DNA of 24,019 bases. Origin: a virus. The stretch is from the IMG/VR virus record IMGVR_UViG_3300035698_012146, positions 1-24,019 of that record; one strand, 5' to 3'. Numbering within the stretch: position 1 is the first letter of the stretch; the number at the start of each line of letters is the position of its first letter. The notes below the pieces were generated by a model, which saw nothing but the letters and a program-made list of their open reading frames with translations, was not told the DNA's origin and searched no databases. Positions 3,585 to 16,995 of this stretch are shown piece after piece. Made by a program: the position numbers and the translations under genes.

Positions 3585-5401
3585 CAAGTCAACCTCCCTT
3601 GCGTCTCTTTCCCTCTCGCCTTTCCTTCGAAGACATATTCAGTCACTAAGTACGGTTCAACTGCCGAGTTTGAAACAAAGCGGAATCTTCCAATCCCACC
3701 CATGAACCTAAAGTTCGTCCGTCCTTCAGTCTTTCCCGCCGCTATTGTCATTGTTCCGAGAGATTTCCAATCATCTCCTCGATTGTTCGATCCTTCAACA
3801 GAAAAGATTAGAGCAGTATTTAAGCTCTCTTCAATTTTTAAAGAAACCTTTGTCCAAACTTTAGTAACGTCAGGAGAACCGAGATCATAATCCGGGGTTG
3901 TTATCTCAGCCTGAATCGCTGTACCATCATGATTCGCATCTCCAGTTTTTAAAAAATAATAAAGCGAAGTGCCGACTCCGATGTAGAAAAAGGTTTCATC
4001 GCTATTGAGTCCGGTCAGAGCTACCCAGGTTGAGAAGTTAGTAAATCCCCCAGCCCAGGTATCAGCTACGGTAAGAACTCCGGCAAGAGCGAGGTCAGTC
4101 CAGGCAGTATCCTCTATTGTCTTCGAAACAGCTAACATCGTCGCTGCTCTTGTTACCTTACTCCAAGATTTCGACTGCCAGTCGAAGGCCCAGAGTTGTT
4201 CCATCTCTATCCCGTTCTTAGGAAAGCCGATGACGATTCTGGAATTTTCATAATCAGTTATGGCAAAAATCTTATAAGGTCTTTGGCATTTCTGTATTGT
4301 CTCTTTAACTACCGGGGTACCGATCGGTTCAAGCTGGCCCCTGCCGGAGAGGAAGTAGACATTATCCTTTCCTACCCAGAAATGACCATCGAACCAACGA
4401 GTGACTGCCCGTTGTCCAACGAGGCCGATACCCCCTGTATCAAGTTGACGGAAAGAAACTGGTAAGGTCGATAAATTAGTATCTGATCCTAGCCAAATAG
4501 CATCTTCAAAATAGGCTACTAAAAAGTTACTCATTCTAAGTAACTTCCTCAATCTCCCTGATTGATAAGGCAGGTCGAGATAATCAGCAACATCAAAAGT
4601 GTCGTAGTTACCGATTCCAAGATTGCTCCATCTGATCCTACTTCGGTAAGCAGTACCCGATTCCGTGGTGTACCCTATCCAAATTCTGTCATTATAATAA
4701 CCTATTATATGAGGTTTATAAGCCAGAGTCGCTGAGTAATCTTCAAAAGTCGTTCCGTCGAAAGAGTAGATATTCCTCGTTCCGTCTGTCATCAATAATC
4801 TATTATGAGCTACAGTGTAATCAACGAAAGAATCATACACCGTGGAGAATGCTCTCCTAATCGAGTAATCAGATCCAGCACCAAAGGTCCCCGTTGCTGC
4901 GGTCTTTATCGTGATCTGTGTATTACTATCTACTGTATCAATAACCACCGACTCAGGGCCATCACCAGAACCATTAGCATCAAGAACGACAATGTCCCCT
5001 TCCTGAAGCTCTTGTCCTGTCCAGGTAGTTCCTGATCCTGTAATCGTTGTACTTGATACAGTAATCGTCCCTACAGCATAGGTCCAATAAACTCCAGTAA
5101 GTCCAGAAACTGCAAGTTTATAGCAATATTTCTGATCAACTGCTGCGGTGAACTGATCTCCATCAGTCTGCCAAACATCCTGAAGAAGAGAATAGGGAGG
5201 GTAAGTACAGGTGATTCCTGAACCGTAAGCGAATAACCCCCCTATCCTTTTCAACCCCTCTGGTTTAGAAAGAAAGCCTTCGAGATCGAGAAATCCACCG
5301 GTCGGAATCCCCTGAGGAGGAAGGTTAAGAATGATTCCTTTATTCAAAGGACGGTATGGTATCTGTTGCGTTGTCCCTGGAATAAGGGGGTAGTCACTCA
5401 T
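3584..5401 (-). CDS. tail nozzle / DNA-stabilisation protein, P22 gp10-like
   Basis: A 605-residue beta-rich protein, the likely distal nozzle or plug of a short tail that keeps packaged DNA in the head. The ATG at 5401 overlaps the end of the upstream membrane-protein gene by eight bases and has GAGGTG seven bases upstream. The N-terminus carries a 'PL..GI.LNLPP..IP.GGF..LEGFLSKPEGL+R' pattern. Many beta-propeller blades follow (NRLLMTDGTRNIYSF, NDRIWIGYT, DGHFWVGKDNVYFLSGRG, LWAFDWQSKSWSKV). The C-terminus has a typical 'WTKVSLKIEESLN...RFRFV...' module. Residues about 110-184 look like an inserted small beta domain. The pattern matches phage stabilisation proteins of the P22 gp10 type as I know them. 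This gene is the main reason to call the phage a podovirus. Confidence 0.8.
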   Translation of the reverse strand: MSDYPLIPGTTQQIPYRPLNKGIILNLPPQGIPTGGFLDLEGFLSKPEGLKRIGGLFAYGSGITCTYPPYSLLQDVWQTDGDQFTAAVDQKYCYKLAVSGLTGVYWTYAVGTITVSSTTITGSGTTWTGQELQEGDIVVLDANGSGDGPESVVIDTVDSNTQITIKTAATGTFGAGSDYSIRRAFSTVYDSFVDYTVAHNRLLMTDGTRNIYSFDGTTFEDYSATLAYKPHIIGYYNDRIWIGYTTESGTAYRSRIRWSNLGIGNYDTFDVADYLDLPYQSGRLRKLLRMSNFLVAYFEDAIWLGSDTNLSTLPVSFRQLDTGGIGLVGQRAVTRWFDGHFWVGKDNVYFLSGRGQLEPIGTPVVKETIQKCQRPYKIFAITDYENSRIVIGFPKNGIEMEQLWAFDWQSKSWSKVTRAATMLAVSKTIEDTAWTDLALAGVLTVADTWAGGFTNFSTWVALTGLNSDETFFYIGVGTSLYYFLKTGDANHDGTAIQAEITTPDYDLGSPDVTKVWTKVSLKIEESLNTALIFSVEGSNNRGDDWKSLGTMTIAAGKTEGRTNFRFMGGIGRFRFVSNSAVEPYLVTEYVFEGKARGKETQGRLT

Positions 5402-5621
5402 CGTTTTTCACCTCTTTCTTCACCTCTTTCTTCACTCCTTGTACCGCTCTCTTAGCGAGATAGGCCATGGTGATTGCTCCGGCGAAAGAAACTATCTGCA
5501 CCGTTGGTAATGTTTTCTCAGTAAAAATTTCGAGAACAAGAGAGAGAATGAGGACAATGTTCCAGAAGATAGTCAGTAACCAAGTCCTTGATTGAAGTTT
5601 CTTCTTCATCTCTACTTCCAT
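5394..5621 (-). CDS. two-helix membrane protein, holin candidate
   Basis: A 75-residue protein with two predicted membrane helices: residues about 13-33 (TWLLTIFWNIVLILSLVLEI) and about 43-60 (IVSFAGAITMAYLAKRAV). They are joined by a short polar turn (TEKTLPT), and the lysine-rich tail KKEVKKEVKNDE should face the cytoplasm. The ATG at 5621 has GGAGGGG six to seven bases upstream and overlaps the phosphoesterase gene by ten bases. The internal Met5 is less well placed. Size, topology and position three genes after the broken holin-like gene and two after the amidase fit a class II holin, which would release the amidase to the cell wall. It could instead be a membrane-anchored virion or accessory protein; no family signature proves holin function. 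Confidence 0.75.
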   Translation of the reverse strand: MEVEMKKKLQSRTWLLTIFWNIVLILSLVLEIFTEKTLPTVQIVSFAGAITMAYLAKRAVQGVKKEVKKEVKNDE

Positions 5622-6343
5622 ATTCTCCCCTCCCAGATAAAGGATTGGTCGATGATGTTAATCGGATAGAGCTGAAAGTTTCCATCATCTTTAACATAGA
5701 CCACAGCAAACCCTTGTTGCCAACCCATGGGTTGACCTTTAAGATAATCAGGTTGAACATCAGAACAGCAACCCAAGGTCCAACATTGAACCTCTTCGTT
5801 AAAATTCGGCACTACCCTAGAGAAAGTCTGAAAGCGATGCACATGACCCATAACGACATTACCAAGATAAACATCAAGATGTTTCCTAGCGGGGTAAAGT
5901 CCTGCCCAAAAGCCGTGGATAAAGTTAATCTTCCCTCTCCGGTAGGGTTGTTTGAGTTGAGGAAAATAACGAACTCCTCTCTTTTTAAAATCAAAAACTT
6001 TCGGATACTCGACAAAACCTTCCCAACGAGGGTCTGACGTAACCAACCTGTCAACTCTTTCATCATGATTCCCCTGTAATATCGTCAAATCCTTTGTCCA
6101 TCTTTGAAGAAAATCGAGATCCTTCTTCGCTAGATCAAAATCGGCAACTAACCTTCTTCCTTCGAGATGTTTTAAATTATCCCGATCGAAAGAACTAAGG
6201 TAGTTCAGATCCAACCAATCACCAAGGTCAACGGCAAAATCTGGCTTCATTGACTTAATGAATTTCTTAATCAGAGAATACGTAGGATGTTCCTCTTTCG
6301 TAGCATCAAGATGTTTATCAGCAATGATAATTCCCATTTTCAT
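5612..6343 (-). CDS. calcineurin-like metallophosphoesterase
   Basis: A 243-residue protein with the full calcineurin-like motif series: D-x-H (D9, H11), GDWLD (residues 41-45), GNHDER (91-96), FIHG (141-144, H143) and GHVHR (166-170). These residues bind two metal ions in phosphodiesterases and phosphatases of this superfamily. An ATG six codons upstream (6361) is in frame. The ATG at 6343 lies in an ATGA overlap with the amidase stop, like many junctions in this operon, and puts the first motif at the N-terminus, so I choose it. The substrate is unknown; phage members may be nucleases or nucleotide/protein phosphatases. Its place between the amidase and the two-helix membrane protein means it is expressed late, with lysis genes. 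Family certain, role unknown. Confidence 0.85.
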   Translation of the reverse strand: MKMGIIIADKHLDATKEEHPTYSLIKKFIKSMKPDFAVDLGDWLDLNYLSSFDRDNLKHLEGRRLVADFDLAKKDLDFLQRWTKDLTILQGNHDERVDRLVTSDPRWEGFVEYPKVFDFKKRGVRYFPQLKQPYRRGKINFIHGFWAGLYPARKHLDVYLGNVVMGHVHRFQTFSRVVPNFNEEVQCWTLGCCSDVQPDYLKGQPMGWQQGFAVVYVKDDGNFQLYPINIIDQSFIWEGRIWK

Positions 6344-6930
6344 TTTTCTAACATACCCCATTCTTTGTGTTCTTGATCAATCTTCCTCAAGAACCTATGC
6401 CATTCTTCTTCGTTTTTAACAAAATATTTAGGACATATTTTTTCAGTGATGTCATAATGACGAAAGATATTGTCGGTGGTTAGTTCATGTTGCTTCAACA
6501 ACGATCCTCCTAAGAACGCCCCCGCCTTAATCGTTTCGTCGGTAAACTTACCTGAAGAGTCTGGATGGCATAGTTCGATACCAATCGTACACCAATTTGG
6601 TGTAGACCTTCTTTTGTTGTAAGTATACCCATGAAATGAGTTAAAGGCAAGGAGAGTATATTCTCTAGCCCCTACGTGGTAAGCTATTTCATCATCGGGG
6701 ATGACCTGGAGAATTTCCCCATCGATGCCGATAATGTAGTGAGCTGAAGCGAAACGATCTCGCTTTCTGTCGTTCTCATCCTGATTCGCTAACATCTCGA
6801 AATAACGTCTCGTAACGTCATTTTCCTGACCCGAAGCTCCTGTATAGTGATAAACTATTCCAAGTACTTCAGTTAGCTTTTCCCCTGGTCGAGAGAAGGG
6901 GTTGATCGGAAGTAATTTCTTTACTATCAT
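6340..6930 (-). CDS. endolysin, N-acetylmuramoyl-L-alanine amidase (Amidase_2 type)
   Basis: A 196-residue single-domain amidase that would cut the bond between N-acetylmuramic acid and L-alanine in peptidoglycan. The zinc ligands expected for the T7-lysozyme/PGRP fold are visible: H28 in IVYHYTG, H158 in FRHYD and C166 in KICPKYF. The supporting motifs are ASAHYIIGIDGEILQVIPDD (residues 61-80), AYHVGA, IGIELCHPD with E119, and DIT-x-K-x-CP. There is no signal peptide and no separate cell-wall-binding domain, so it should depend on a holin for export. The ATG at 6930 has AGGGAG six to seven bases upstream, directly after the interrupted holin-like frame. The stop forms an ATGA overlap with the phosphoesterase. 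Confidence 0.9.
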   Translation of the reverse strand: MIVKKLLPINPFSRPGEKLTEVLGIVYHYTGASGQENDVTRRYFEMLANQDENDRKRDRFASAHYIIGIDGEILQVIPDDEIAYHVGAREYTLLAFNSFHGYTYNKRRSTPNWCTIGIELCHPDSSGKFTDETIKAGAFLGGSLLKQHELTTDNIFRHYDITEKICPKYFVKNEEEWHRFLRKIDQEHKEWGMLEK

Positions 6931-6931
6931 C

Positions 6932-7027
6932 TTAGCTCCCTACGGTGATATTAAAAAGGCCCTTAAAAAATAACATAATCTTATCCCAATTAGAAACGAC
7001 AGAAACGATGATACCTATTGTTCCAGC
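6932..7027 (-). pseudogene. in-frame continuation of the holin-like gene after the TAA, encoding its membrane helix
   Basis: Reading straight through the TAA at 7030-7028 gives 31 further codons, beginning AGTIGIIVSVVSNWDK and ending KGLFNITVGS, then TAA at 6934-6932. The first part is a convincing membrane helix, and the W-D-K that follows is a typical interface end. No ATG, GTG or TTG lies near its beginning, and the only ATG is within the last third, so it cannot be a separate gene. The end falls one base before the amidase ATG, the tight junction seen for real genes here. I therefore read 6932-7240 as one 102-codon gene split by one stop codon. Confidence 0.6.
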
Positions 7028-7240
7028 TTAAACAGCTCTCCTGCCTAGAATCTGTTTCCAACTGACTGAAGAAGAAGAACCCTGATGAGCATTCTGAATT
7101 AAAGAACATTCTGTCTTCGTTACCATATTGTCCTTTAATTCCTTAACCTGACGAACCACACCATCAGCACCATTTGTCCCGTAAAAACCATACCAAAGTT
7201 GATCAATAGTCTCTCCCTGGGTCTTTGGTTTTGTTGCCAT
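7028..7240 (-). CDS. truncated holin-like / membrane-anchor protein (70 aa, ends at an in-frame TAA)
   Basis: The ATG at 7240 has AAGGAG about six bases upstream. The 70-residue product has an IDQLWYGFYGTNGADGVVRQ opening and a coiled-coil stretch (KELKDNMVTKTE). This resembles small phage proteins next to lysins that end in one membrane helix, of the XhlA-like type. Here translation ends at TAA (7030-7028) just as the hydrophobic part begins (SWKQILGRRAV). The same frame continues beyond the stop for 31 codons encoding a good membrane helix, up to a second stop that sits at the ribosome-binding site of the amidase. As annotated, the product lacks its membrane anchor. It is probably a nonsense-mutated or misread holin partner. 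The family is from memory; the interruption is seen directly. Confidence 0.7.
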   Translation of the reverse strand: MATKPKTQGETIDQLWYGFYGTNGADGVVRQVKELKDNMVTKTECSLIQNAHQGSSSSVSWKQILGRRAV

Positions 7241-9352: not shown

Positions 9353-10150
9353 TTAAATCACCCGATGAATTGACATCTGATTATACGCCGCTTCTCCAAG
9401 AGAGTTGACAGCTCCTGCTGAATCTTGAAACAGTTTGAAGTAATAAGATTCACCCGCTGTCAGACTGACTATTCCACTGACCTGACTATCCAAAAATCGT
9501 TCATACGCAACATCAGGATAAGAATAGGTTCCTGCAATTAACTGAGTTGCCCCATACCAAAAACCAAGTACCCAACGATCTCCTGCTGTCCATGTTGTTC
9601 CTGCACTCATTACTCTACCGTCAATGTGATAATATCCTGTAGTAGCAGGGACGAAGGCCCCCGTTGCTTCATCATATTCCTTAAGAATATCATCATCTTC
9701 AACATTGAAAATCACCGTAGTCCAGGCCCCATCAGCCATCGCTTGCGCCGTTGTTTGATTAGCTAAAACCACCGTCCTAGCTCCTTCAAGAGGACCGACT
9801 GCTTTCCAATCACTACCGTCGTAGTAATAGAGAATACTATCATCAGAATCTATCCAAAGCCTTCCAGCGTCGGTAGAAGAGAGATTTGTTGAAGCATTCG
9901 GTCTTGTGGTAGGTTCAGCGTCAGCATAGTAAGCTACGGCAGATCCTTCTCGATGAGTTCCGTCAAGAAGAGGAGCGCCGTTAGTACTGTCTCCAGTGTA
10001 AGTAAAATGCTCATTCTTCAATCGTTCAAGATAAGCAGTCTTAACCTCTCTTATCTCACTCGCTCCCTGACTCGGTGAATCGCTATCTGCTGGATTTAGT
10101 ATCCAACTTCCGTCAGCAGTCGTCGCTAATAAAGACCATAATAAATTCAT
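9353..10150 (-). CDS. C1q-like tail fibre or tail appendage protein
   Basis: A 265-residue protein starting in a TAATG overlap with the adaptor gene, with AGGGAGAG just upstream. Residues about 1-65 may be the attachment part; a linker with GRLWIDSDDS and YYYDGSDWKAVG (residues 97-119) follows. From about residue 125 the pattern (AWTTVIFNVEDDD, TGYYHIDGRVMSAG, WVLGFWYGATQLIAG, SGIVSLTAGESYYFKLFQDS, NQMSIHRVI) fits the C1q/TNF-like jelly-roll that forms trimers at the end of many phage fibres. The protein probably binds the host surface or decorates the tail with the larger fibre encoded just downstream. The domain call rests on pattern recognition and is moderate. The start and frame are firm. 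Confidence 0.7.
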   Translation of the reverse strand: MNLLWSLLATTADGSWILNPADSDSPSQGASEIREVKTAYLERLKNEHFTYTGDSTNGAPLLDGTHREGSAVAYYADAEPTTRPNASTNLSSTDAGRLWIDSDDSILYYYDGSDWKAVGPLEGARTVVLANQTTAQAMADGAWTTVIFNVEDDDILKEYDEATGAFVPATTGYYHIDGRVMSAGTTWTAGDRWVLGFWYGATQLIAGTYSYPDVAYERFLDSQVSGIVSLTAGESYYFKLFQDSAGAVNSLGEAAYNQMSIHRVI

Positions 10151-11115
10151 TATTCTCTCCCTAAGTTACCGAAATCGTAATCTCGTTCATACTCTATCTC
10201 ATAAGTCGACACCGTTCGTCTCATAAAATCATCGAATCTCTGACCAACTGACCAAGCTTCTGTCGGAGCCTGTTGTCGAGAAAACCCCCAACGCATACAC
10301 CAAAGAACGATACCATAGTGAAACATCTCAGGAATCTCTGGTTCATCATCATCTTCTGAAAGAGAGGTCGGTCCTCGATAATACTCTAGCTTATACCATC
10401 TACTATCTCCCGGTGCTCGTTCGAAAACAAGTTGATTCCCATACCGTCTCCATTGCCTCGGATCTCCAGTGTCGGTATGAAGGGAGATAGAGTCAGCAGT
10501 TCGGTCCATTCGATCGAAGGTTATCTTCTGCTCCAGGTCTGATACTTTGAGAATATCGATCAGGTTCCCAGTTGATCGGTAACGATCAGTTTCTGCTGGT
10601 AATGAGATATGCTCCGTAGCCCAAGCGTGGGTTGATGGAAGGAGGAGAAAGAATGCTTTGTACATATAGAAAGTATCAGCAACAGCGGGAGCAGTACCGA
10701 AGTCAGTATGCACCGTTGCTGTCCGTGTCGTACCATCGTAGTCGACGATCTTCATCGTTTCTGACCCTATCGTGATCAACCAGCTATTATATTGATCATC
10801 ACTAGTCCCTACCGAGGTAGCTGCTGTACCGTTGAAGGTAAAGGTTGTTGGGAGAACTACGGTAGATACCGTTCCAACAGCAGCTATCGTCCCCGTAGCG
10901 TAGGTAGTCTTAAAATAAAGCTCATCCATCAAATTCCTTAACCGAAGGATTCTTCCCGATGACTTATCTTTCCAAGATGCTATCTCTCTCTGAGCTTCAT
11001 TAACTGCCCAATTCAATAACGGACCATCGCTATACTGAACATCAGTATCCGGGTCAAGATCTTGAGGCTCCCCGATCTGTTGCCATATTTCGTTTCTAAT
11101 AAACTCTAAAGTCAT
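10150..11115 (-). CDS. head-tail connector / adaptor protein (gp4-like role)
   Basis: A 321-residue protein; the ATG at 11115 is preceded by AGGAGAAAGG. The N-terminus (LEFIRNEIWQQIGEP, LLNWAVNEAQREIASWKDK, residues 4-52) and the C-terminus (PEMFHYGIVLWCMRWGFSRQ, residues 262-281, then a helix ending TYEIEYERDYDFG) form the helical frame usual for proteins that dock under the portal. Residues about 75-155 look like an inserted beta domain (TIGSETMKIVDYDGTTRTAT). The order portal, capsid, adaptor, nozzle agrees with a head-completion role. The family pattern is known to me from many podovirus and siphovirus structural operons, but the exact family is not certain. It is translationally coupled to the C1q-like fibre gene by TAATG. 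Confidence 0.65.
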   Translation of the reverse strand: MTLEFIRNEIWQQIGEPQDLDPDTDVQYSDGPLLNWAVNEAQREIASWKDKSSGRILRLRNLMDELYFKTTYATGTIAAVGTVSTVVLPTTFTFNGTAATSVGTSDDQYNSWLITIGSETMKIVDYDGTTRTATVHTDFGTAPAVADTFYMYKAFFLLLPSTHAWATEHISLPAETDRYRSTGNLIDILKVSDLEQKITFDRMDRTADSISLHTDTGDPRQWRRYGNQLVFERAPGDSRWYKLEYYRGPTSLSEDDDEPEIPEMFHYGIVLWCMRWGFSRQQAPTEAWSVGQRFDDFMRRTVSTYEIEYERDYDFGNLGRE

Positions 11116-11124
11116 ACCTTTCTC

Positions 11125-11391
11125 CTATTGGTAGAAAACTAAAACAAATCCTGAATCTATGGTATCTACATCAATTCCATCAGTCATGTTAAAGAAAGGG
11201 AGAATATCGATAAAGTTTGCCCCGTCAGCTACGGAATGCCAAACAATATCTCCCGCTGTGTCGTTGATAATCAATTCATGATCAGCGGTTGTACCATTAA
11301 CCCAACGAAGATAACGAATAGCTAATCTCCCCGTTATCGCATCAGTCGATGTTATCTTCTGAACCTTTCCCCGAATTCCAGTTACTGCCAT
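11125..11391 (-). CDS. small beta-rich virion protein, paralogue of the 92-aa protein encoded at 14817-14539
   Basis: An 88-residue protein. The open frame extends 34 codons further upstream (to 11493), but the ATG at 11391 has AAGGAGG eight bases upstream and overlaps the stop of the 50-aa gene as TAATG. The upstream extension also overlaps that gene in another frame, so I choose 11391. The sequence has a GRLAIRYLRWVNGTTADHEL segment, a DTAG turn and an ending DGIDVDTIDSGFVLVFYQ. The same series (D..xGRL, W..G.T..H, DTAG, GxxVDxxxSGxVxVF) occurs in the 92-aa protein, so the two are paralogues. It is probably a small head or tail decoration protein. No function can be assigned from sequence alone. 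Confidence 0.8.
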   Translation of the reverse strand: MAVTGIRGKVQKITSTDAITGRLAIRYLRWVNGTTADHELIINDTAGDIVWHSVADGANFIDILPFFNMTDGIDVDTIDSGFVLVFYQ

Positions 11392-11543
11392 TAAGTAACC
11401 CTCCTTGAAGAACCTAAGTACCGATTCCGTCTCCGTCTCCATCGATCGAAAGAGGGGAGACCATAGATTGTAAAATAATAACCAGTAAACCAATTCCCCG
11501 TCGTTGTTTTAGTAAAGAAATTCTCTGTAAAATAACCAGCCAT
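11391..11543 (-). CDS. 50-aa protein of unknown function
   Basis: A small gene coupled on both sides. Its ATG (11543-11541) overlaps the TAA of the 288-aa gene as TAATG, and its TAA (11393-11391) overlaps the ATG of the 88-aa gene as TAATG. It fills the space between them exactly. The first 34 residues (MAGYFTENFFTKTTTGNWFT, then GYYFTIYGLPSFDRW) are aromatic and look like a small beta structure. The arginine-rich end (RWRRRRNRY...SSRRVT) is partly forced by the purine-rich ribosome-binding site of the next gene. The upstream Shine-Dalgarno (AAGGG about ten bases away) is weak, so it probably depends on translational coupling. Function unknown; a minor virion component is possible. Confidence 0.65.
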   Translation of the reverse strand: MAGYFTENFFTKTTTGNWFTGYYFTIYGLPSFDRWRRRRNRYLGSSRRVT

Positions 11544-12409
11544 TAACTACCATCCCTTGTACCAACCGCTGTCCTGTTCCCGTTAGCATCTAAAGTAGCT
11601 GAGAGTCTATTTTTACTATCTGCCGTATCTCGGTAAACATGAGTCACTCCACCACCGCCAGAAGATTTTCCCGTCAGTACCGATAACATCAAACTCTGAG
11701 CTTCTTTTAGCGTTATCGTTCCTTCAACCACTCCAGCAAGAACGGCAGTGACTATTTCAGCAGCAGTGGGAGCAACCCCGGCGGCATCGGGTACTACTGT
11801 ATTTGCGCTGTCCGTTCCCCGCATCGCCGTGAGCGGAATAGCCGCAATGTCAGCAGAAATATCAGCACCTACAGCCGAGCCAATGGTTGTCGCGAGAGCC
11901 GCGTTATCAGTACCACGCATCGTGGTCGGGATATTGGAAATGTCTGTCGGGAGGTTGGCCGACGCAAGCTCGTCAACGTATCCGGCCCGCGCTGCTGTCC
12001 ATGCCGAGGCAAGTGCCGCACTGTCGGTGCCGCGCATATCGGTGTTTGTCGTTGTGGTGCCAACTGTCTGACTTGCCATAGCCGTGTCTAAATCAAAGGC
12101 ATGTTCTGCCGAAGCGTTGCCATAGGTCTCTATTTTTAGAATCTCATCAAGCCATACCTTAGTCGCCGAGTCTACGATATACACTGTAATCTCAGCCGCT
12201 TCCATCTCTGTCGAGGTCAGCGTGAGCGAGTAGCCCATGCCTTCATCTACAAAGTCGTTGGTACAGGTAGCGTCGGCCCCCTGGTCCTTCCTAATATTAC
12301 AATCAGTCCCGGCGTCGGCAGCGTCAACCCGAAAGTCTACGCCATCCACCTCGAACAAAGCGAAATTGACTATTGTTTCTACGCCGTACTTCCTAAGATA
12401 TTCTTGCAC
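11543..12409 (-). CDS. phage structural protein with MRGTD repeats
   Basis: A 288-residue protein starting at GTG (12409-12407), with GGAGG seven bases upstream and directly after the TAA of the 410-aa gene. Residues about 15-110 form a beta domain (FALFEVDGVDFRVDA, DEGMGYSLTLTSTEMEAAEI, KIETYGNASAEHAFDLD) that I know from many phage structural operons. Three MRGTD motifs follow at residues 125-129, 164-168 and 196-200, each with Ala/Asp-rich spacers. The C-terminus has a GGGG linker and RDTADSKNRLSATLDANGNR, a recurrent ending in such proteins. The role is probably a tail or head fibre-like component. Base composition by eye is more GC-rich than in flanking genes, as for the next two genes upstream, which suggests acquisition as a block. 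Confidence 0.75.
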   Translation of the reverse strand: MQEYLRKYGVETIVNFALFEVDGVDFRVDAADAGTDCNIRKDQGADATCTNDFVDEGMGYSLTLTSTEMEAAEITVYIVDSATKVWLDEILKIETYGNASAEHAFDLDTAMASQTVGTTTTNTDMRGTDSAALASAWTAARAGYVDELASANLPTDISNIPTTMRGTDNAALATTIGSAVGADISADIAAIPLTAMRGTDSANTVVPDAAGVAPTAAEIVTAVLAGVVEGTITLKEAQSLMLSVLTGKSSGGGGVTHVYRDTADSKNRLSATLDANGNRTAVGTRDGS

Positions 12410-12410
12410 T

Positions 12411-13643
12411 TTACTGCCTCCGCCTTCGTAATACTACTATCGAGCCGACTGCTGCCGGTACACCCAGGGCCAACGCTGCCCACTTCCGAACTGTGCCATC
12501 AGCCGCCGAGTAATTCAGTGTCCAACCGCCTGCGTCAAAACTGGTTAGGGTTGCGTCGTGCATTGCCGTACCATCGTCTAAATCATAATTGATAGCTACG
12601 TCATCGCAGACCGATTGTGTATCGCTTGTATCTTCGGCATCCTCGGACTGCGCCCCCACTGTAAACTCTTCGCTTGCGGTAATGACGCTGACATTGAATG
12701 AGTAAACATCTGCCACGTCTATCGTATTTTCTGCGGTACATGGAGAACCGAGCATCATCAAGAAGCTTGGTTGAAAGCCTATCCCGGCTGTCGCATCTGC
12801 TCCGGTTGCTGTCGGTGAATCTTGGGAAGTGAGGCTCTTTGAAACGTTGGCAGAAAAATCAAAAGACAACCAGCCGAAATCATCCGACCCGCTCCCCCCA
12901 TTGCGAGTCGTTACATCAAAAGCCGTGGATGAAATAGCGGTAACTTCTCCGTACCATGTCCACGCACCGGCGTGTAGTTGCCCCATAACACTGTCATTCC
13001 GAACGTCTTGAAAATTGGCAACAACATCAAGGCTGTCAGGCCCACTCATTGCCATTTGACGCTGAGTCAATGAGCCATCGTCAATCACCATGCCATAAGA
13101 AAATATATTGTGTGAGGAACCACCATCACTTGCCAAACCCGAACAAGCAAAAAGAACTAAATCATTCGGATGTCCAGTTGTTATTGTGACCGCATTATCA
13201 ACCGTTGAATGAGCTGTACCAACTCCCACCGTAACATTCTCAATATCCGTTCCACCATAGAAAACGGCAATGACATACTTCGCCGTTCCCATCGCATCTG
13301 TCCAGTTGATTCTAATACCATCAGTTATCCAAGAATCAAAAGCGGCAACTCCATCTGTTGAACCAGATTCCACCAGTATATGCAAACAAGCATCAGAGTC
13401 TTGAACTCTATTAGTATCCGAGGAACTTTGTGCATCCTCATCAGACACACCAAAACACCATTCGTTTGTCCCATCAGTTGCACCAATACCAATAACACCC
13501 CCCGGATTAACTTCCGAACCAGATTCAGCACCACTCAGATAAAACATTACCGCTTTCGGCGTTCCGAATCCAGCGATAGTTATATCCTGCGTTCCGGTTG
13601 CTGTGTCGGTTAAAAATCTGACGGCTCTAATATCAAGTGACAT
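12411..13643 (-). CDS. three-module beta-rich virion protein, possible capsid or tail decoration
   Basis: A 410-residue acidic protein; the ATG at 13643 has GAGGAA five bases upstream. It looks built from three tandem modules of about 125 residues: about 9-130, 140-262 and 271-394. The first and third share the clearest pattern: a T-x-TG start, G.P.(F) then EDAQSSSDTNRVQD (residues 69-82) versus EDAEDTSDTQSVCD (334-347), then D.......G....NW/NY..A.GT. The middle copy keeps the 'TTGHPNDLVLFACSG' start and a closing W..F. There are few lysines and many Ser, Thr, Asp and Gly, as in extracellular beta proteins. It ends in a hydrophobic stretch plus RRRRQ; the arginines coincide with the ribosome-binding site of the next gene. 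The function is unknown; surface decoration is inferred. Confidence 0.75.
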   Translation of the reverse strand: MSLDIRAVRFLTDTATGTQDITIAGFGTPKAVMFYLSGAESGSEVNPGGVIGIGATDGTNEWCFGVSDEDAQSSSDTNRVQDSDACLHILVESGSTDGVAAFDSWITDGIRINWTDAMGTAKYVIAVFYGGTDIENVTVGVGTAHSTVDNAVTITTGHPNDLVLFACSGLASDGGSSHNIFSYGMVIDDGSLTQRQMAMSGPDSLDVVANFQDVRNDSVMGQLHAGAWTWYGEVTAISSTAFDVTTRNGGSGSDDFGWLSFDFSANVSKSLTSQDSPTATGADATAGIGFQPSFLMMLGSPCTAENTIDVADVYSFNVSVITASEEFTVGAQSEDAEDTSDTQSVCDDVAINYDLDDGTAMHDATLTSFDAGGWTLNYSAADGTVRKWAALALGVPAAVGSIVVLRRRRQ

Positions 13644-13651
13644 TTTTTCCT

Positions 13652-14101
13652 CTACGGCCCGACTGTTTTCAAGCCCGTTAATGGGGCAAGGAGTAAAGTA
13701 CCCGTCACTAAATAGGCATAACGTGACGTAGGGTCCACGGCCAGCGGGTCATTCGACCACGCGATTGTTGATTCAGAAATCGCTCCATAAGCAGTCTCGC
13801 CTACCGCACTTACACCGATATAGTAATAGCCCCTGTACAGCGCCGATAAATCCACGGTGCTTTCTGCTACCAGTACGTTACCGAGAAATACACAATTATC
13901 ACATCCCGGCGCGAGAGCGTAGTACACGTTGTAAGATATGATATCATCGGATAGAAAAGGTTCGCCGCTTACATCCGTAGTGGGCGCGTTCCATACAATG
14001 ATCTGCGGAATCATCCCGCTGTACACGATATCAACATCTGCCGGTTGCCCACACGCCGCGAACGCCACGAAAAACATCAGTGCGATAAGTAACTTTTTCA
14101 T
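13652..14101 (-). CDS. putative lipoprotein with a fibronectin type III-like domain
   Basis: A 149-residue protein. The ATG at 14101 lies in an ATGA overlap with the 57-aa membrane-protein gene. MKKLLIALMFFVAFAAC is a signal sequence with Cys17 at a lipobox-like site; F at -3 is unusual, A at -2 and -1 is good. After this, residues about 25-117 resemble a fibronectin III domain (DIISYNVYYALAP, CVFLGNVLVAESTVDLSALY, GYYYIGVSAVGETAYGAISE). Cys67 and Cys70 could form a disulfide. If lipidated, it would act on the host envelope, for example in superinfection exclusion, or it may be a virion protein whose hydrophobic N-terminus is structural. Expression with a two-helix membrane protein favours an envelope role. 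That is inference. Confidence 0.75.
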   Translation of the reverse strand: MKKLLIALMFFVAFAACGQPADVDIVYSGMIPQIIVWNAPTTDVSGEPFLSDDIISYNVYYALAPGCDNCVFLGNVLVAESTVDLSALYRGYYYIGVSAVGETAYGAISESTIAWSNDPLAVDPTSRYAYLVTGTLLLAPLTGLKTVGP

Positions 14102-14271
14102 TTCTTAACTCCATTAATCAACGCAACGATTGCGGCGATTGTAGCAAAAGAGAGACCAACAATGCCGGAGGTATTTCCAACATCACCACCAGAAAGAGCA
14201 ATAGCCCCTGCACCAATAGCAACAGCAATTGCTCCACCGATTCCTAAAATCTTCCTCATCTTCTCTGTCAT
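14098..14271 (-). CDS. 57-aa two-helix membrane protein, second holin-like candidate
   Basis: A small gene joined by ATGA overlaps at both ends: its ATG (14271-14269) overlaps the TGA of the coiled-coil gene, and its TGA (14100-14098) overlaps the ATG of the lipoprotein gene. The product starts MTEKMRK and has two hydrophobic helices at residues about 8-27 (ILGIGGAIAVAIGAGAIAL) and 36-53 (GIVGLSFATIAAIVALI), split by SGGDVGNTS, with a short basic tail NGVKK. Small size, two helices and charged ends fit a class II holin or a small membrane anchor. It lies far from the amidase and beside a lipoprotein, so a role in membrane modification or exclusion is just as possible. The reading frame is strongly supported by the double coupling. 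Confidence 0.7.
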   Translation of the reverse strand: MTEKMRKILGIGGAIAVAIGAGAIALSGGDVGNTSGIVGLSFATIAAIVALINGVKK

Positions 14272-14483
14272 AACCCCGCCTCCCTCTCTTGTATCTTCAT
14301 CATATTATCTAATCTCTCTAAATGATGAAATCTCTTCTTCGATCGTTCGATAGGTTCTCTATTCTCTTTTTCACCTTTCTCTACTCTCTTTTCCAAGTTT
14401 TCGATTCTATCATTTAGGATCTCAAAAATAGAATCAATAGCCCCGTAGAGAATTCTCTCTCTTTTTTTTCTAAAAAAAAACAT
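14268..14483 (-). CDS. 71-aa coiled-coil protein, possibly with a longer N-terminus reached by frame slippage
   Basis: The ATG at 14483 gives MFFFRKKRER, a helix (ILYGAIDSIFEILNDRIENL), then a charged coiled coil (EKRVEKGEKENREPIERSKK) and a basic end. The stop is in an ATGA overlap with the membrane-protein gene. The start lies on a T9 run followed by A-G-A8. A better-placed Shine-Dalgarno site (AGGAAAG) belongs to a short upstream frame at 14529-14470. Loss of one T, or one slip on T9, would fuse that frame to this one to make an 86-residue protein. The site upstream of 14483 (AGAAGAAG) is weaker. Possible roles are a cytoplasmic partner of the adjacent two-helix protein or a minor virion protein. 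Function unknown. Confidence 0.6.
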   Translation of the reverse strand: MFFFRKKRERILYGAIDSIFEILNDRIENLEKRVEKGEKENREPIERSKKRFHHLERLDNMMKIQEREAGL

Positions 14484-14529
14484 AATCTTCTTCTGTACAT
14501 CGAATTACATTTATTCCGTGTGTTATCAT
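14470..14529 (-). CDS. 19-codon upstream frame, possible true start of the coiled-coil gene
   Basis: ATG at 14529-14527 follows AGGAAAG with good spacing, overlapping the TAG of the 92-aa gene. It encodes MITHGINVIRCTEEDYVFF and stops at TAG (14472-14470), at the end of the T9 run. With eight Ts instead of nine the frame would continue directly into the coiled-coil protein as ...DYVFFRKKRER. It may be the authentic N-terminus displaced by a homopolymer error, a transcriptional-slippage gene, or a leader peptide that couples the 92-aa and 71-aa genes. As an independent 19-aa protein it has little support. Confidence 0.35.
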   Translation of the reverse strand: MITHGINVIRCTEEDYVFF

Positions 14530-14538
14530 ATTTCTTTC

Positions 14539-14817
14539 CTATGCTAAGAATACATCAACAACCCCAGAACCGAGGACATCGACCTCAAGGCCGTTAAGTA
14601 AGATCGGTGTACCGAAGCTAACGGTAATCTCTTGACCAATAACTCCAGCGGTGATCGGACCGAAGATAAGCGCTCCTGCGGTATCTTTCATTGCCATAGT
14701 ATGCGTAGCATTAGTTGATCCTGACCAGGTAAAACCTTTAACAACTAACCTACCGGCTTGGGTATCTGCCGCAGCGCCATAGTGTAGTGATCTCCATTCA
14801 TTATTTACTACTGACAT
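14539..14817 (-). CDS. 92-aa beta-rich virion protein, paralogue of the 88-aa protein encoded at 11391-11125
   Basis: The ATG at 14817 follows GAGGAG by eight bases. The product has an N-terminal SLHYGAAADTQAGRLVVKGF, a W-S-G-S-T-N-A-T-H turn, KDTAGALIFGPITAG and ends LNGLEVDVLGSGVVDVFLA. It is probably all beta. The order and spacing of conserved positions match the 88-aa protein about 3.2 kb downstream. Small proteins of this composition are frequent in phage head modules as decoration or head-tail joining components, but I do not recognise a named family. It lies between the zinc-ribbon gene and the coiled-coil/membrane cassette. The stop TAG overlaps the ribosome-binding region of the next frame. 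Confidence 0.75.
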   Translation of the reverse strand: MSVVNNEWRSLHYGAAADTQAGRLVVKGFTWSGSTNATHTMAMKDTAGALIFGPITAGVIGQEITVSFGTPILLNGLEVDVLGSGVVDVFLA

Positions 14818-16071: not shown

Positions 16072-16995
16072 TTAAGCCCCTGGATTTCCGTAGCCACCCT
16101 TATAGTCCATGCAGAAAACAGCGAATCGCTGAATTGCTTTAAACAAAGCGTTACCGGTGTAGAAATCATCAGCCGACTCTAACCTAGTTTGGTCTTTCCA
16201 ATAGAGTCTGAAGTCGAGCTGTTTAGAAGTGAGAAACCATGCGGTAGATGAGGTAAGGTACCTCGATACCATGTAATTCCATCCAGAAGGAACAATGTTA
16301 TTTCCTGGATTGACGGTGTTAACGTCATTGTTTGCGGAATTAACTTGATACTCAGTCTGAAGTAGTTTACCCGCTGTCCAACGAAGTTCAGTTGGTACGA
16401 GCAGGAGATGAGGATCGAACTGAAGCGGAAACCCAGCTTCGTCAACAAGACCATCGTAGTATTCGTAAGCAGCCTGTAACGTGGTCTCTGAAAGAGAACC
16501 CGCCGTCGACGGTTCGTTTGCGATAGTCTCTCCACTTTTCAGCGTAGAGTGATCAGTGGTAAAGATTGCTCCAGCATCCCAACAAGTGTGCGTAGTTGAT
16601 GCAAAACCGGAATTGAAAAGATCCCAGAAAACAGCATCGGGTTTAAAAGATGCGCTCTTGGAGAGTTTCTTCGGCATCTGTTTGAAATTACCGAATAGAT
16701 CATCTTTCATCATTTCCTCGGTAATCTGAAAACCAAGACCGTACTTGGTGTAGTAAACTGTTTTCTTATTCCCTTCGACAGGAAGATCAAAAGTCAGTCC
16801 ATTACCTTCTGTTATCGTCTGAAGTGCTCCGAGAGGAGAGATCTCACTCTCGATGTAGTGATTGCCCGGAGGTGCGGTCTGCACCTTGGCAACTGCCTGA
16901 TATTCTCTCTTGTAACTGGTATAGTCATCGAAAAAGATATTATTAATATCCCGGTCAAGATGATTACCAAATACTCCTGTATTACTTATAGCCAT
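16072..16995 (-). CDS. major capsid protein, HK97-fold
   Basis: A 307-residue protein with the strongest ribosome-binding site of the head block (AGGAGGT, six bases from the ATG at 16995), as expected for the most abundant virion protein. Visible features are an N-terminal extended region with DYTSYKREYQAVAKVQTAPP (E-loop-like), YGLGFQITEEMMKDDLFGNF, DAVFWDLFNSGF with H/D-rich residues after it (FTTDHSTL), LLLVPTELRWTAGKLLQTEY and a closing FAVFCMDYKGGYGNPGA. This is the pattern of Mu gpT-like and related HK97-fold capsid proteins. There is no cleavable prohead protease domain and no protease gene nearby, so maturation is probably without large proteolysis, with the separate scaffold protein encoded two genes upstream. 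Position between the decoration-like and beta-helix genes supports the call. Confidence 0.85.
   Translation of the reverse strand: MAISNTGVFGNHLDRDINNIFFDDYTSYKREYQAVAKVQTAPPGNHYIESEISPLGALQTITEGNGLTFDLPVEGNKKTVYYTKYGLGFQITEEMMKDDLFGNFKQMPKKLSKSASFKPDAVFWDLFNSGFASTTHTCWDAGAIFTTDHSTLKSGETIANEPSTAGSLSETTLQAAYEYYDGLVDEAGFPLQFDPHLLLVPTELRWTAGKLLQTEYQVNSANNDVNTVNPGNNIVPSGWNYMVSRYLTSSTAWFLTSKQLDFRLYWKDQTRLESADDFYTGNALFKAIQRFAVFCMDYKGGYGNPGA

What the first reader, a model, noticed from the sequence alone, without database searches (positions are those of the whole stretch)
13652..14529. Coupled trio: coiled-coil protein, two-helix membrane protein, Fn3-like lipoprotein
Three small genes joined by two ATGA overlaps lie between capsid and tail genes, away from the lysis genes. 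The set (cytoplasmic coiled coil, inner-membrane hairpin, exported lipoprotein) could span the envelope. Candidate roles are an alternative lysis unit, superinfection exclusion, or a membrane-associated assembly or ejection aid. I know of no described system with exactly this composition, but I cannot search.
Basis: inference. Interest (0 to 1): 0.65.

Follow-up and report, generated by a model that had tools for sequence, protein, structure and literature searches.

The report
Orphan phage envelope-gene cassette
A phage carries three small overlapping genes, two of them probably for membrane-attached proteins, that look like optional cargo slipped between its capsid and tail genes; no relatives of them were found, and what they do is a reasoned guess, most likely changing the infected cell's surface to keep other phages out.

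Summary
On the minus strand lie A (14483-14268, 71 aa, charged, heptad-like helix), B (14271-14098, 57 aa, two hydrophobic helices) and C (14101-13652, 149 aa, lipoprotein signal), joined by two ATGA overlaps. All three frames look coding. The "Fn3" label is not supported by any search made. A starts inside a 19-codon leader frame (14529), at a T9/A8 homopolymer site.

No homologue of A, B or C turned up in phage GenBank, IMG/VR patterns, PHROGs, Pfam, NCBIfam, PADLOC or 34-40 related virus records. The block sits in a highly variable interval of this podovirus-like lineage, between the capsid gene and g17. Twenty-five of 25 relatives that span this interval lack it; they hold other genes there, so this is lineage-specific accessory cargo.

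Best functional reading, inferred only: an envelope-acting cassette, most likely superinfection exclusion. A spare lysis unit is less likely: C does not meet the u-spanin criteria, and a lysis module sits elsewhere. Three unrelated cargo genes remain a serious rival. Interest is modest.

The parts
14268..14483 (-). A: 71-aa soluble, highly charged protein; heptad pattern at residues 16-34; basic N-terminus
   Evidence: no homologue
14098..14271 (-). B: 57-aa protein with two hydrophobic helices; positive ends predict N-in/C-in; helix 1 weakly hydrophobic and Gly/Ala-rich (11 of 19)
   Evidence: no homologue
13652..14101 (-). C: 149-aa predicted lipoprotein (lipobox AFAAC, Cys17), exported domain with Cys67/Cys70, weak C-terminal hydrophobic stretch
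   Evidence: no homologue
14268..14271 (-). ATGA overlap A/B
14098..14101 (-). ATGA overlap B/C
14470..14529 (-). 19-codon leader frame (MITHGINVIRCTEEDYVFF, stop) with an AGGA ribosome-binding site; A's ATG lies inside it, and its stop falls at a T9/A8 homopolymer site
   Evidence: function inferred
11543..13643 (-). Rest of the same insert: 410-aa (12411-13643) and 288-aa (11543-12409) proteins, probably virion surface proteins (inferred)
   Evidence: no homologue of the 410-aa protein in phages or viral contigs; one partial match of the 288-aa protein, 39% over half
14539..14817 (-). g10, 92-aa backbone gene upstream of the insert
   Evidence: homologues in relatives
11125..11391 (-). g16, 88-aa paralogue of g10 downstream of the insert (a longer 122-aa TTG-start form was also used as query)
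   Evidence: 31% over 75 aa, E=6e-11; matches the g10 slot in relatives
10150..11115 (-). g17, conserved structural gene closing the variable interval (head-tail connector role inferred)
   Evidence: found in 17 loci
16072..16995 (-). Major capsid protein opening the variable interval
   Evidence: phrog_4523 E=7.6e-18, phrog_371 E=1.1e-16
5394..7240 (-). Main lysis region, remote from the trio: two-TM protein 5394-5621, phosphoesterase, amidase endolysin 6340-6930, 70-aa gene 7028-7240

Best explanation
A-B-C is lineage-specific accessory cargo, inserted in the variable interval between the capsid gene and g17 of a podovirus-like phage. It is probably translated as a coupled unit and most likely acts in the host envelope. 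The most likely role is superinfection exclusion: C would be exported and lipid-anchored and would mask or jam a receptor or the entry path, B would sit in the inner membrane, and A would be a cytoplasmic helical partner. Shown: the ORFs, overlaps, predicted targeting signals and the insert nature. Inferred: joint action, timing, target and exclusion.
For: Insert: the distance from capsid gene to g17 is 4957 bp here, the largest of 26; 12 of 25 relatives have 310-467 bp with one gene; none of 25 has the trio; the larger intervals of the rest hold different genes. The backbone is conserved around it. Targeting. Precedent by analogy: small phage lipoproteins exclude superinfection (T5 Llp; Llp and Cor share an intramolecular disulphide; passages of PMC9586334). 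The Cor locus has two further genes for predicted membrane and outer-membrane proteins, lies just downstream of tail fibre genes in unrelated phages, and is absent from close relatives that use other receptors (section 9 of PMC13164509). C also has two exported cysteines, though as CxxC.
Against: No similarity to Cor or its T1 neighbours ST31/ST32, and only weak compositional PADLOC matches. T1 ST31 and ST32 have no predicted TM, so the compositions differ. Exclusion proteins are often made early (PMC9586334 passage), whereas the trio lies among structural genes. Without homologues no co-occurrence test was possible. C has atypical codon use for this genome, and four-base overlaps occur elsewhere in the window.
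Confidence: 0.4

Rival explanations
1. Three cargo genes that happen to lie together, each with its own role or none; the overlaps reflect compact packing only.
For: Four-base overlaps occur at 4 of 26 junctions, two outside the trio. The three genes differ in GC (0.34, 0.44, 0.50) and GC3 (0.36, 0.31, 0.53). The interval collects unrelated genes in relatives.
Against: A double ATGA chain is rare by chance (3 in 200 Markov windows); B and C both look destined for the envelope.
Confidence: 0.27
2. Spare lysis unit: B is a class II, pinholin-like holin, C acts as a spanin, A regulates B.
For: B has two TM helices with charges giving N-in/C-in; helix 1 is weakly hydrophobic (-0.19 kcal on the octanol scale) and Gly/Ala-rich, helix 2 stronger (+4.21). 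No spanin candidate was seen in the main lysis region. The 70-aa gene 7028-7240 has an ochre stop before a possible TM. In relative L023 an 80-aa two-TM gene has a 1-base overlap with an exported protein gene that has C-terminal TM stretches.
Against: C's C-terminal stretch is weak (KD 1.28, octanol +2.9) against T1 gp11 (2.97, +19.3). C has two exported cysteines, whereas none of 58 u-spanins has a periplasmic one (PMC6139136 passage). The endolysin has no SAR-type N-terminus. The two-TM gene g23 of the main lysis region is kept in L036, which lacks the trio (E=2e-8). The trio is remote from the endolysin.
Confidence: 0.15
3. Virion assembly, surface or ejection aid: the proteins end up in or on the particle, or help it meet the membrane.
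For: Location among structural genes, immediately before two probably structural proteins; other cargo in this interval in relatives looks structural by eye.
Against: C carries a lipoprotein signal and B is a bare two-helix membrane protein; neither is usual in tailed virions (general knowledge).
Confidence: 0.13
4. Annotation artefact: A's frame is misjudged because of a homopolymer indel or slippage at 14462-14480, so that the real product is the 14529 frame fused to A.
For: The two longest A/T runs of the window (T9 and A8 on the coding strand) lie exactly where the leader frame ends and A begins; the leader has the better ribosome-binding site.
Against: B and C do not depend on it; A scores as coding in its own frame; A has its own ATG.
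Confidence: 0.05

Closest known systems
Cor superinfection-exclusion locus of T1, HK022, N15, ES18, phi80 (Cor lipoprotein plus two neighbouring genes)
   Same: Small set of genes for envelope proteins including a lipoprotein, placed by structural genes, present in some relatives and absent in others (PMC13164509)
   Different: No significant sequence similarity to T1 ST30/ST31/ST32; in T1 cor is on the opposite strand to its two neighbours; no two-TM or coiled-coil member seen in T1; Cor is 75 aa, C is 149 aa
T5 Llp
   Same: Phage lipoprotein with a cysteine pair, beside a structural (receptor-binding) gene (PMC9586334 passages)
   Different: Single gene with the known target FhuA; no homologue of C found in the phage collection
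T1 gp11 u-spanin
   Same: Similar length (133 vs 149 aa), lipoprotein signal
   Different: Strong C-terminal TM in gp11 and no cysteine in the periplasmic domain of u-spanins; C matches neither well
Class II holins (phage 21 S type; type recalled)
   Same: Two helices, about 60 residues, positive ends, weakly hydrophobic Gly/Ala-rich first helix
   Different: Not beside the endolysin; no holin family match for B
T4 Imm (recalled, not fetched)
   Same: Small membrane protein for exclusion
   Different: Not compared here

Membership tests
Cor/Llp exclusion lipoproteins | Sequence kinship to Cor | tested here: not met
   blastp of A, B, C against T1 Cor, ST31, ST32, gp11, gp13: no hit to Cor at E<=10; best hit of any kind E=0.043 over 15 residues, B to gp11
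Cor/Llp exclusion lipoproteins | Lipoprotein signal | tested here: met
   AFAAC lipobox at Cys17
Cor/Llp exclusion lipoproteins | Blocks a phage receptor | not testable with these tools
   host and receptor unknown
u-spanin | Lipoprotein signal | tested here: met
u-spanin | C-terminal TM domain | tested here: inconclusive
   KD19 1.28, octanol +2.92 versus gp11 2.97 and +19.26; contains Pro
u-spanin | No periplasmic cysteine (0 of 58 known, PMC6139136) | tested here: not met
   Cys67 and Cys70
Two-component spanin | i-spanin with N-terminal TM plus periplasmic coiled coil, next to an o-spanin lipoprotein | tested here: not met
   A has no TM (best KD19 0.35); B has no periplasmic domain
Class II holin | Two TM helices, N-in/C-in, small | tested here: met
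   topology from charge distribution only
Class II holin | Membership of a holin family | tested here: not met
   no holin family for B at E<=1 in PHROGs or Pfam, E<=10 in NCBIfam
Class II holin | Permeabilises the inner membrane at lysis time | not testable with these tools
   needs expression
Fibronectin type III domain (C) | Match to the fn3 profile or fold | tested here: not met
   profile: PF00041 none at E<=10 in the window, Pfam none at E<=1, PDB none at E<=10; fold: models too poor to judge
Lineage-specific phage accessory cargo | Absent from relatives at a variable site between conserved genes | tested here: met
   0 of 25 relatives; phmmer none for A, B, C at E<=10 in 9,428 frames
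Moron in the strict sense | Own promoter and terminator | tested here: inconclusive
   no promoter-like site in the 55-base gap before A; promoter-like sites in the region are fewer than in shuffles; minus-strand terminator-like stems at 14575-14562, 14188-14157 and 14168-14156, the last two inside B

The most novel reading that the evidence does not exclude
A, B and C form one envelope-spanning machine with no described counterpart: a cytoplasmic helical protein signals through a small two-helix membrane protein to an exported lipoprotein, coupling the stage of virion assembly to closure of the cell surface or to lysis timing, with A's level set by a slippery leader frame.
Probability: 0.06. 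Interest if true: 0.65.

Novelty: new member of a known kind. Interest (0 to 1): 0.27.

Why it matters
If the exclusion reading is right, this would be another, unrelated lipoprotein-plus-membrane-protein exclusion cassette, in an uncultured podovirus-like lineage, suggesting that such cassettes arise repeatedly beside structural genes. The firmer result is a map of an accessory slot between the capsid gene and g17 that ranges from about 0.3 to 5 kb and holds different genes in different members of the lineage.

Tried and rejected
Homologue hunts for A, B and C: tblastn in 50,697 phage records, IMG/VR patterns, one genome-collection scan with C, 40 related records for C (26, which held no record in which C is known to match, and 14) and 34 for A and B, phmmer on 9,428 stop-to-stop frames: nothing besides the window itself.

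Weak family hits were rejected as compositional: phrog_21319 for C (E=0.083; the same model also rings in 6 of 14 control genomes at E<=1), phrog_1296 holin for A (0.11), FliD and Herpes_UL6 for A, PADLOC CARF3 for A (0.002) and 2TM effector for B (0.043), MYXO-CTERM for the 410-aa protein (0.63).

Structure: AF2 of C and of its middle 101 residues gave pLDDT 32 and 40, so no fold search was run. Host: no prophage relatives by MCP; the amidase resembles phages of Bacillus and Listeria, the MCP a virus assigned to Methanomicrobiales (42.6%); host left open. The first idea of C as a u-spanin (note) was demoted after the T1 gp11 comparison and the cysteine rule. Papers: two searches for Fn3 plus lipoprotein plus exclusion or spanin in phage returned 0; broader ones were used only as listings. 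PMC11436027 held none of the four searched terms. The lipoprotein scan of relatives uses a home-made rule that found C and one convincing case in five contigs; its sensitivity was not measured.

Full report
What is there. On the minus strand three small genes run 14483-14268 (A, 71 aa), 14271-14098 (B, 57 aa) and 14101-13652 (C, 149 aa), with ATGA overlaps at both junctions. Codon scores put all three frames above their own shuffles: A 0.149 against -0.825+/-0.292, B 0.447 against -0.609+/-0.283, C 0.064 against -0.541+/-0.158. C is below every other gene of the window (24 genes, scored in-sample, 0.134-0.362). Base composition differs among the three (GC 0.34, 0.44, 0.50). A chain of two ATGA junctions is seen once here and 3 times in 200 Markov-1 windows, but single 4-base overlaps also occur at two other junctions of the window.

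Protein features. B has two hydrophobic helices (KD19 2.27 and 2.23), positive residues at both ends, and a first helix that is Gly/Ala-rich and only marginal on the octanol scale. C has a lipobox-type signal ending at Cys17, two more cysteines (67, 70), and a weak hydrophobic stretch near its C-terminus (KD19 1.28). A has no TM; its heptad pattern covers residues 16-34, a pattern that 468 of 5000 shuffles also contain somewhere. The Fn3 label failed every search made, and AF2 without homologues gave no usable model, so the fold of C is open.

The start of A. The finding's limit 14529 is the ATG of a 19-codon frame with a good ribosome-binding site, nine bases after the stop of the preceding gene. 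It ends at a TAG just after A's own ATG, inside T9-AG-A8, the longest A/T runs in the window. Either it is a leader that feeds ribosomes to A, or slippage (or an indel) fuses it to A. Nothing here decides.

The neighbourhood. The window is a structural-gene stretch of a podovirus-like genome (podovirus type inferred from gene content): terminase, portal, capsid, g17, tail genes, amidase endolysin. Related contigs were found through the capsid protein, g17 and the terminase. Of the fetched loci, 25 distinct ones hold both the capsid gene and g17 in this order. Left out of this count were eight loci that repeat the same contigs, loci L001 and L037-L040, and any locus without both genes. In 12 of the 25 the two genes are 310-467 bp apart with one gene between; in the other 13 the gap is 0.9-4.5 kb with differing genes. 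In the window it is 4957 bp, the largest. None of the 25 has the trio, and no frame in the fetched loci matches A, B or C (428 frames in 49 loci, some contigs counted more than once). Two small genes at the two ends of the window's insert, g10 and g16, are paralogues (31% over 75 aa); g16 matches the g10 slot in relatives. So the insert may have come with, or through, a duplicated g10-type gene (inference).

Lysis. The main lysis region is at 5394-7240. It holds an amidase (phrog_9611, E=1.8e-30), a two-TM protein kept in relative L036 (E=2e-8) and a 70-aa gene that has an ochre stop just before a frame that could encode a TM segment. No spanin candidate was seen there. That makes a lysis role for B and C worth testing, but C does not meet the u-spanin criteria: the C-terminal hydrophobic stretch is far weaker than that of T1 gp11, and it has exported cysteines, which 0 of 58 u-spanins have (PMC6139136, passages). 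Work on phage N4 stresses that holins need experimental validation, since they have nondescript TM domains and no conserved domains (PMC12642591, passages).

Closest precedent. The Cor locus joins an exclusion lipoprotein with two genes for predicted membrane and outer-membrane proteins, lies beside tail genes in unrelated phages, and is missing from close relatives that use other receptors (PMC13164509, section 9). T5 Llp shows how such a lipoprotein closes the receptor (PMC9586334, passages). The trio resembles this in composition, place and sporadic presence, not in sequence, and Cor's two T1 neighbours lack predicted TM helices. Exclusion genes are often early, which counts against.

Verdict. 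A real, probably co-translated, lineage-specific insert of orphan genes. I favour superinfection exclusion (0.4), with unrelated cargo genes (0.27), lysis (0.15), virion aid (0.13) and an annotation problem in A (0.05) behind. Nothing here demonstrates function, and the composition is not as unprecedented as first thought.

Noticed in passing
window 7240-6931, minus strand: The 70-aa gene 7028-7240 ends at an in-frame TAA, after which the same frame continues with a TM-like stretch to a second stop just before the endolysin gene; its position matches small genes of L004 and L007 with a C-terminal TM. Possibly an interrupted holin-type gene.
   Followed up: partly
window 14529-14462, minus strand: 19-codon leader frame overlapping the start of A at a T9/A8 homopolymer site; possible translational coupling or slippage.
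   Followed up: partly
window 14539-14817 and 11125-11391: g10 and g16 are paralogues (31% over 75 aa) at the two ends of the insert, hinting at duplication-mediated cargo uptake.
   Followed up: partly
window 12411-13643: The 410-aa protein ends in a hydrophobic stretch followed by RRRRQ; sub-threshold MYXO-CTERM match (E=0.63).
   Followed up: no
L007 14847-15032: 61-aa lipoprotein with a C-terminal TM, directly after the g18 homologue: u-spanin-like layout in a relative.
   Followed up: partly
L023 10576-11198: 80-aa two-TM gene with a 1-base overlap with a 126-aa exported protein gene that has C-terminal TM stretches.
   Followed up: partly
L035 6098-6268: 56-aa single-TM protein with a basic tail, overlapping the preceding Cys-rich (zinc-ribbon-like by eye) gene by 4 bases, in the same interval as the trio.
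   Followed up: partly
L003 5839-7187, L006 9205-9897, L009 11240-11932: Other cargo in the same interval looks like glycosyltransferase and methyltransferase genes by eye; not tested.
   Followed up: no
L004 10735-11976: Two adjacent frames (185 and 222 aa) look like one split LamG-type gene by eye; not tested.
   Followed up: no
window 16072-16995: Closest named MCP relative is vir526 (42.6%), assigned to a Methanomicrobiales host, whereas the amidase resembles Bacillus and Listeria phages; host unresolved.
   Followed up: partly
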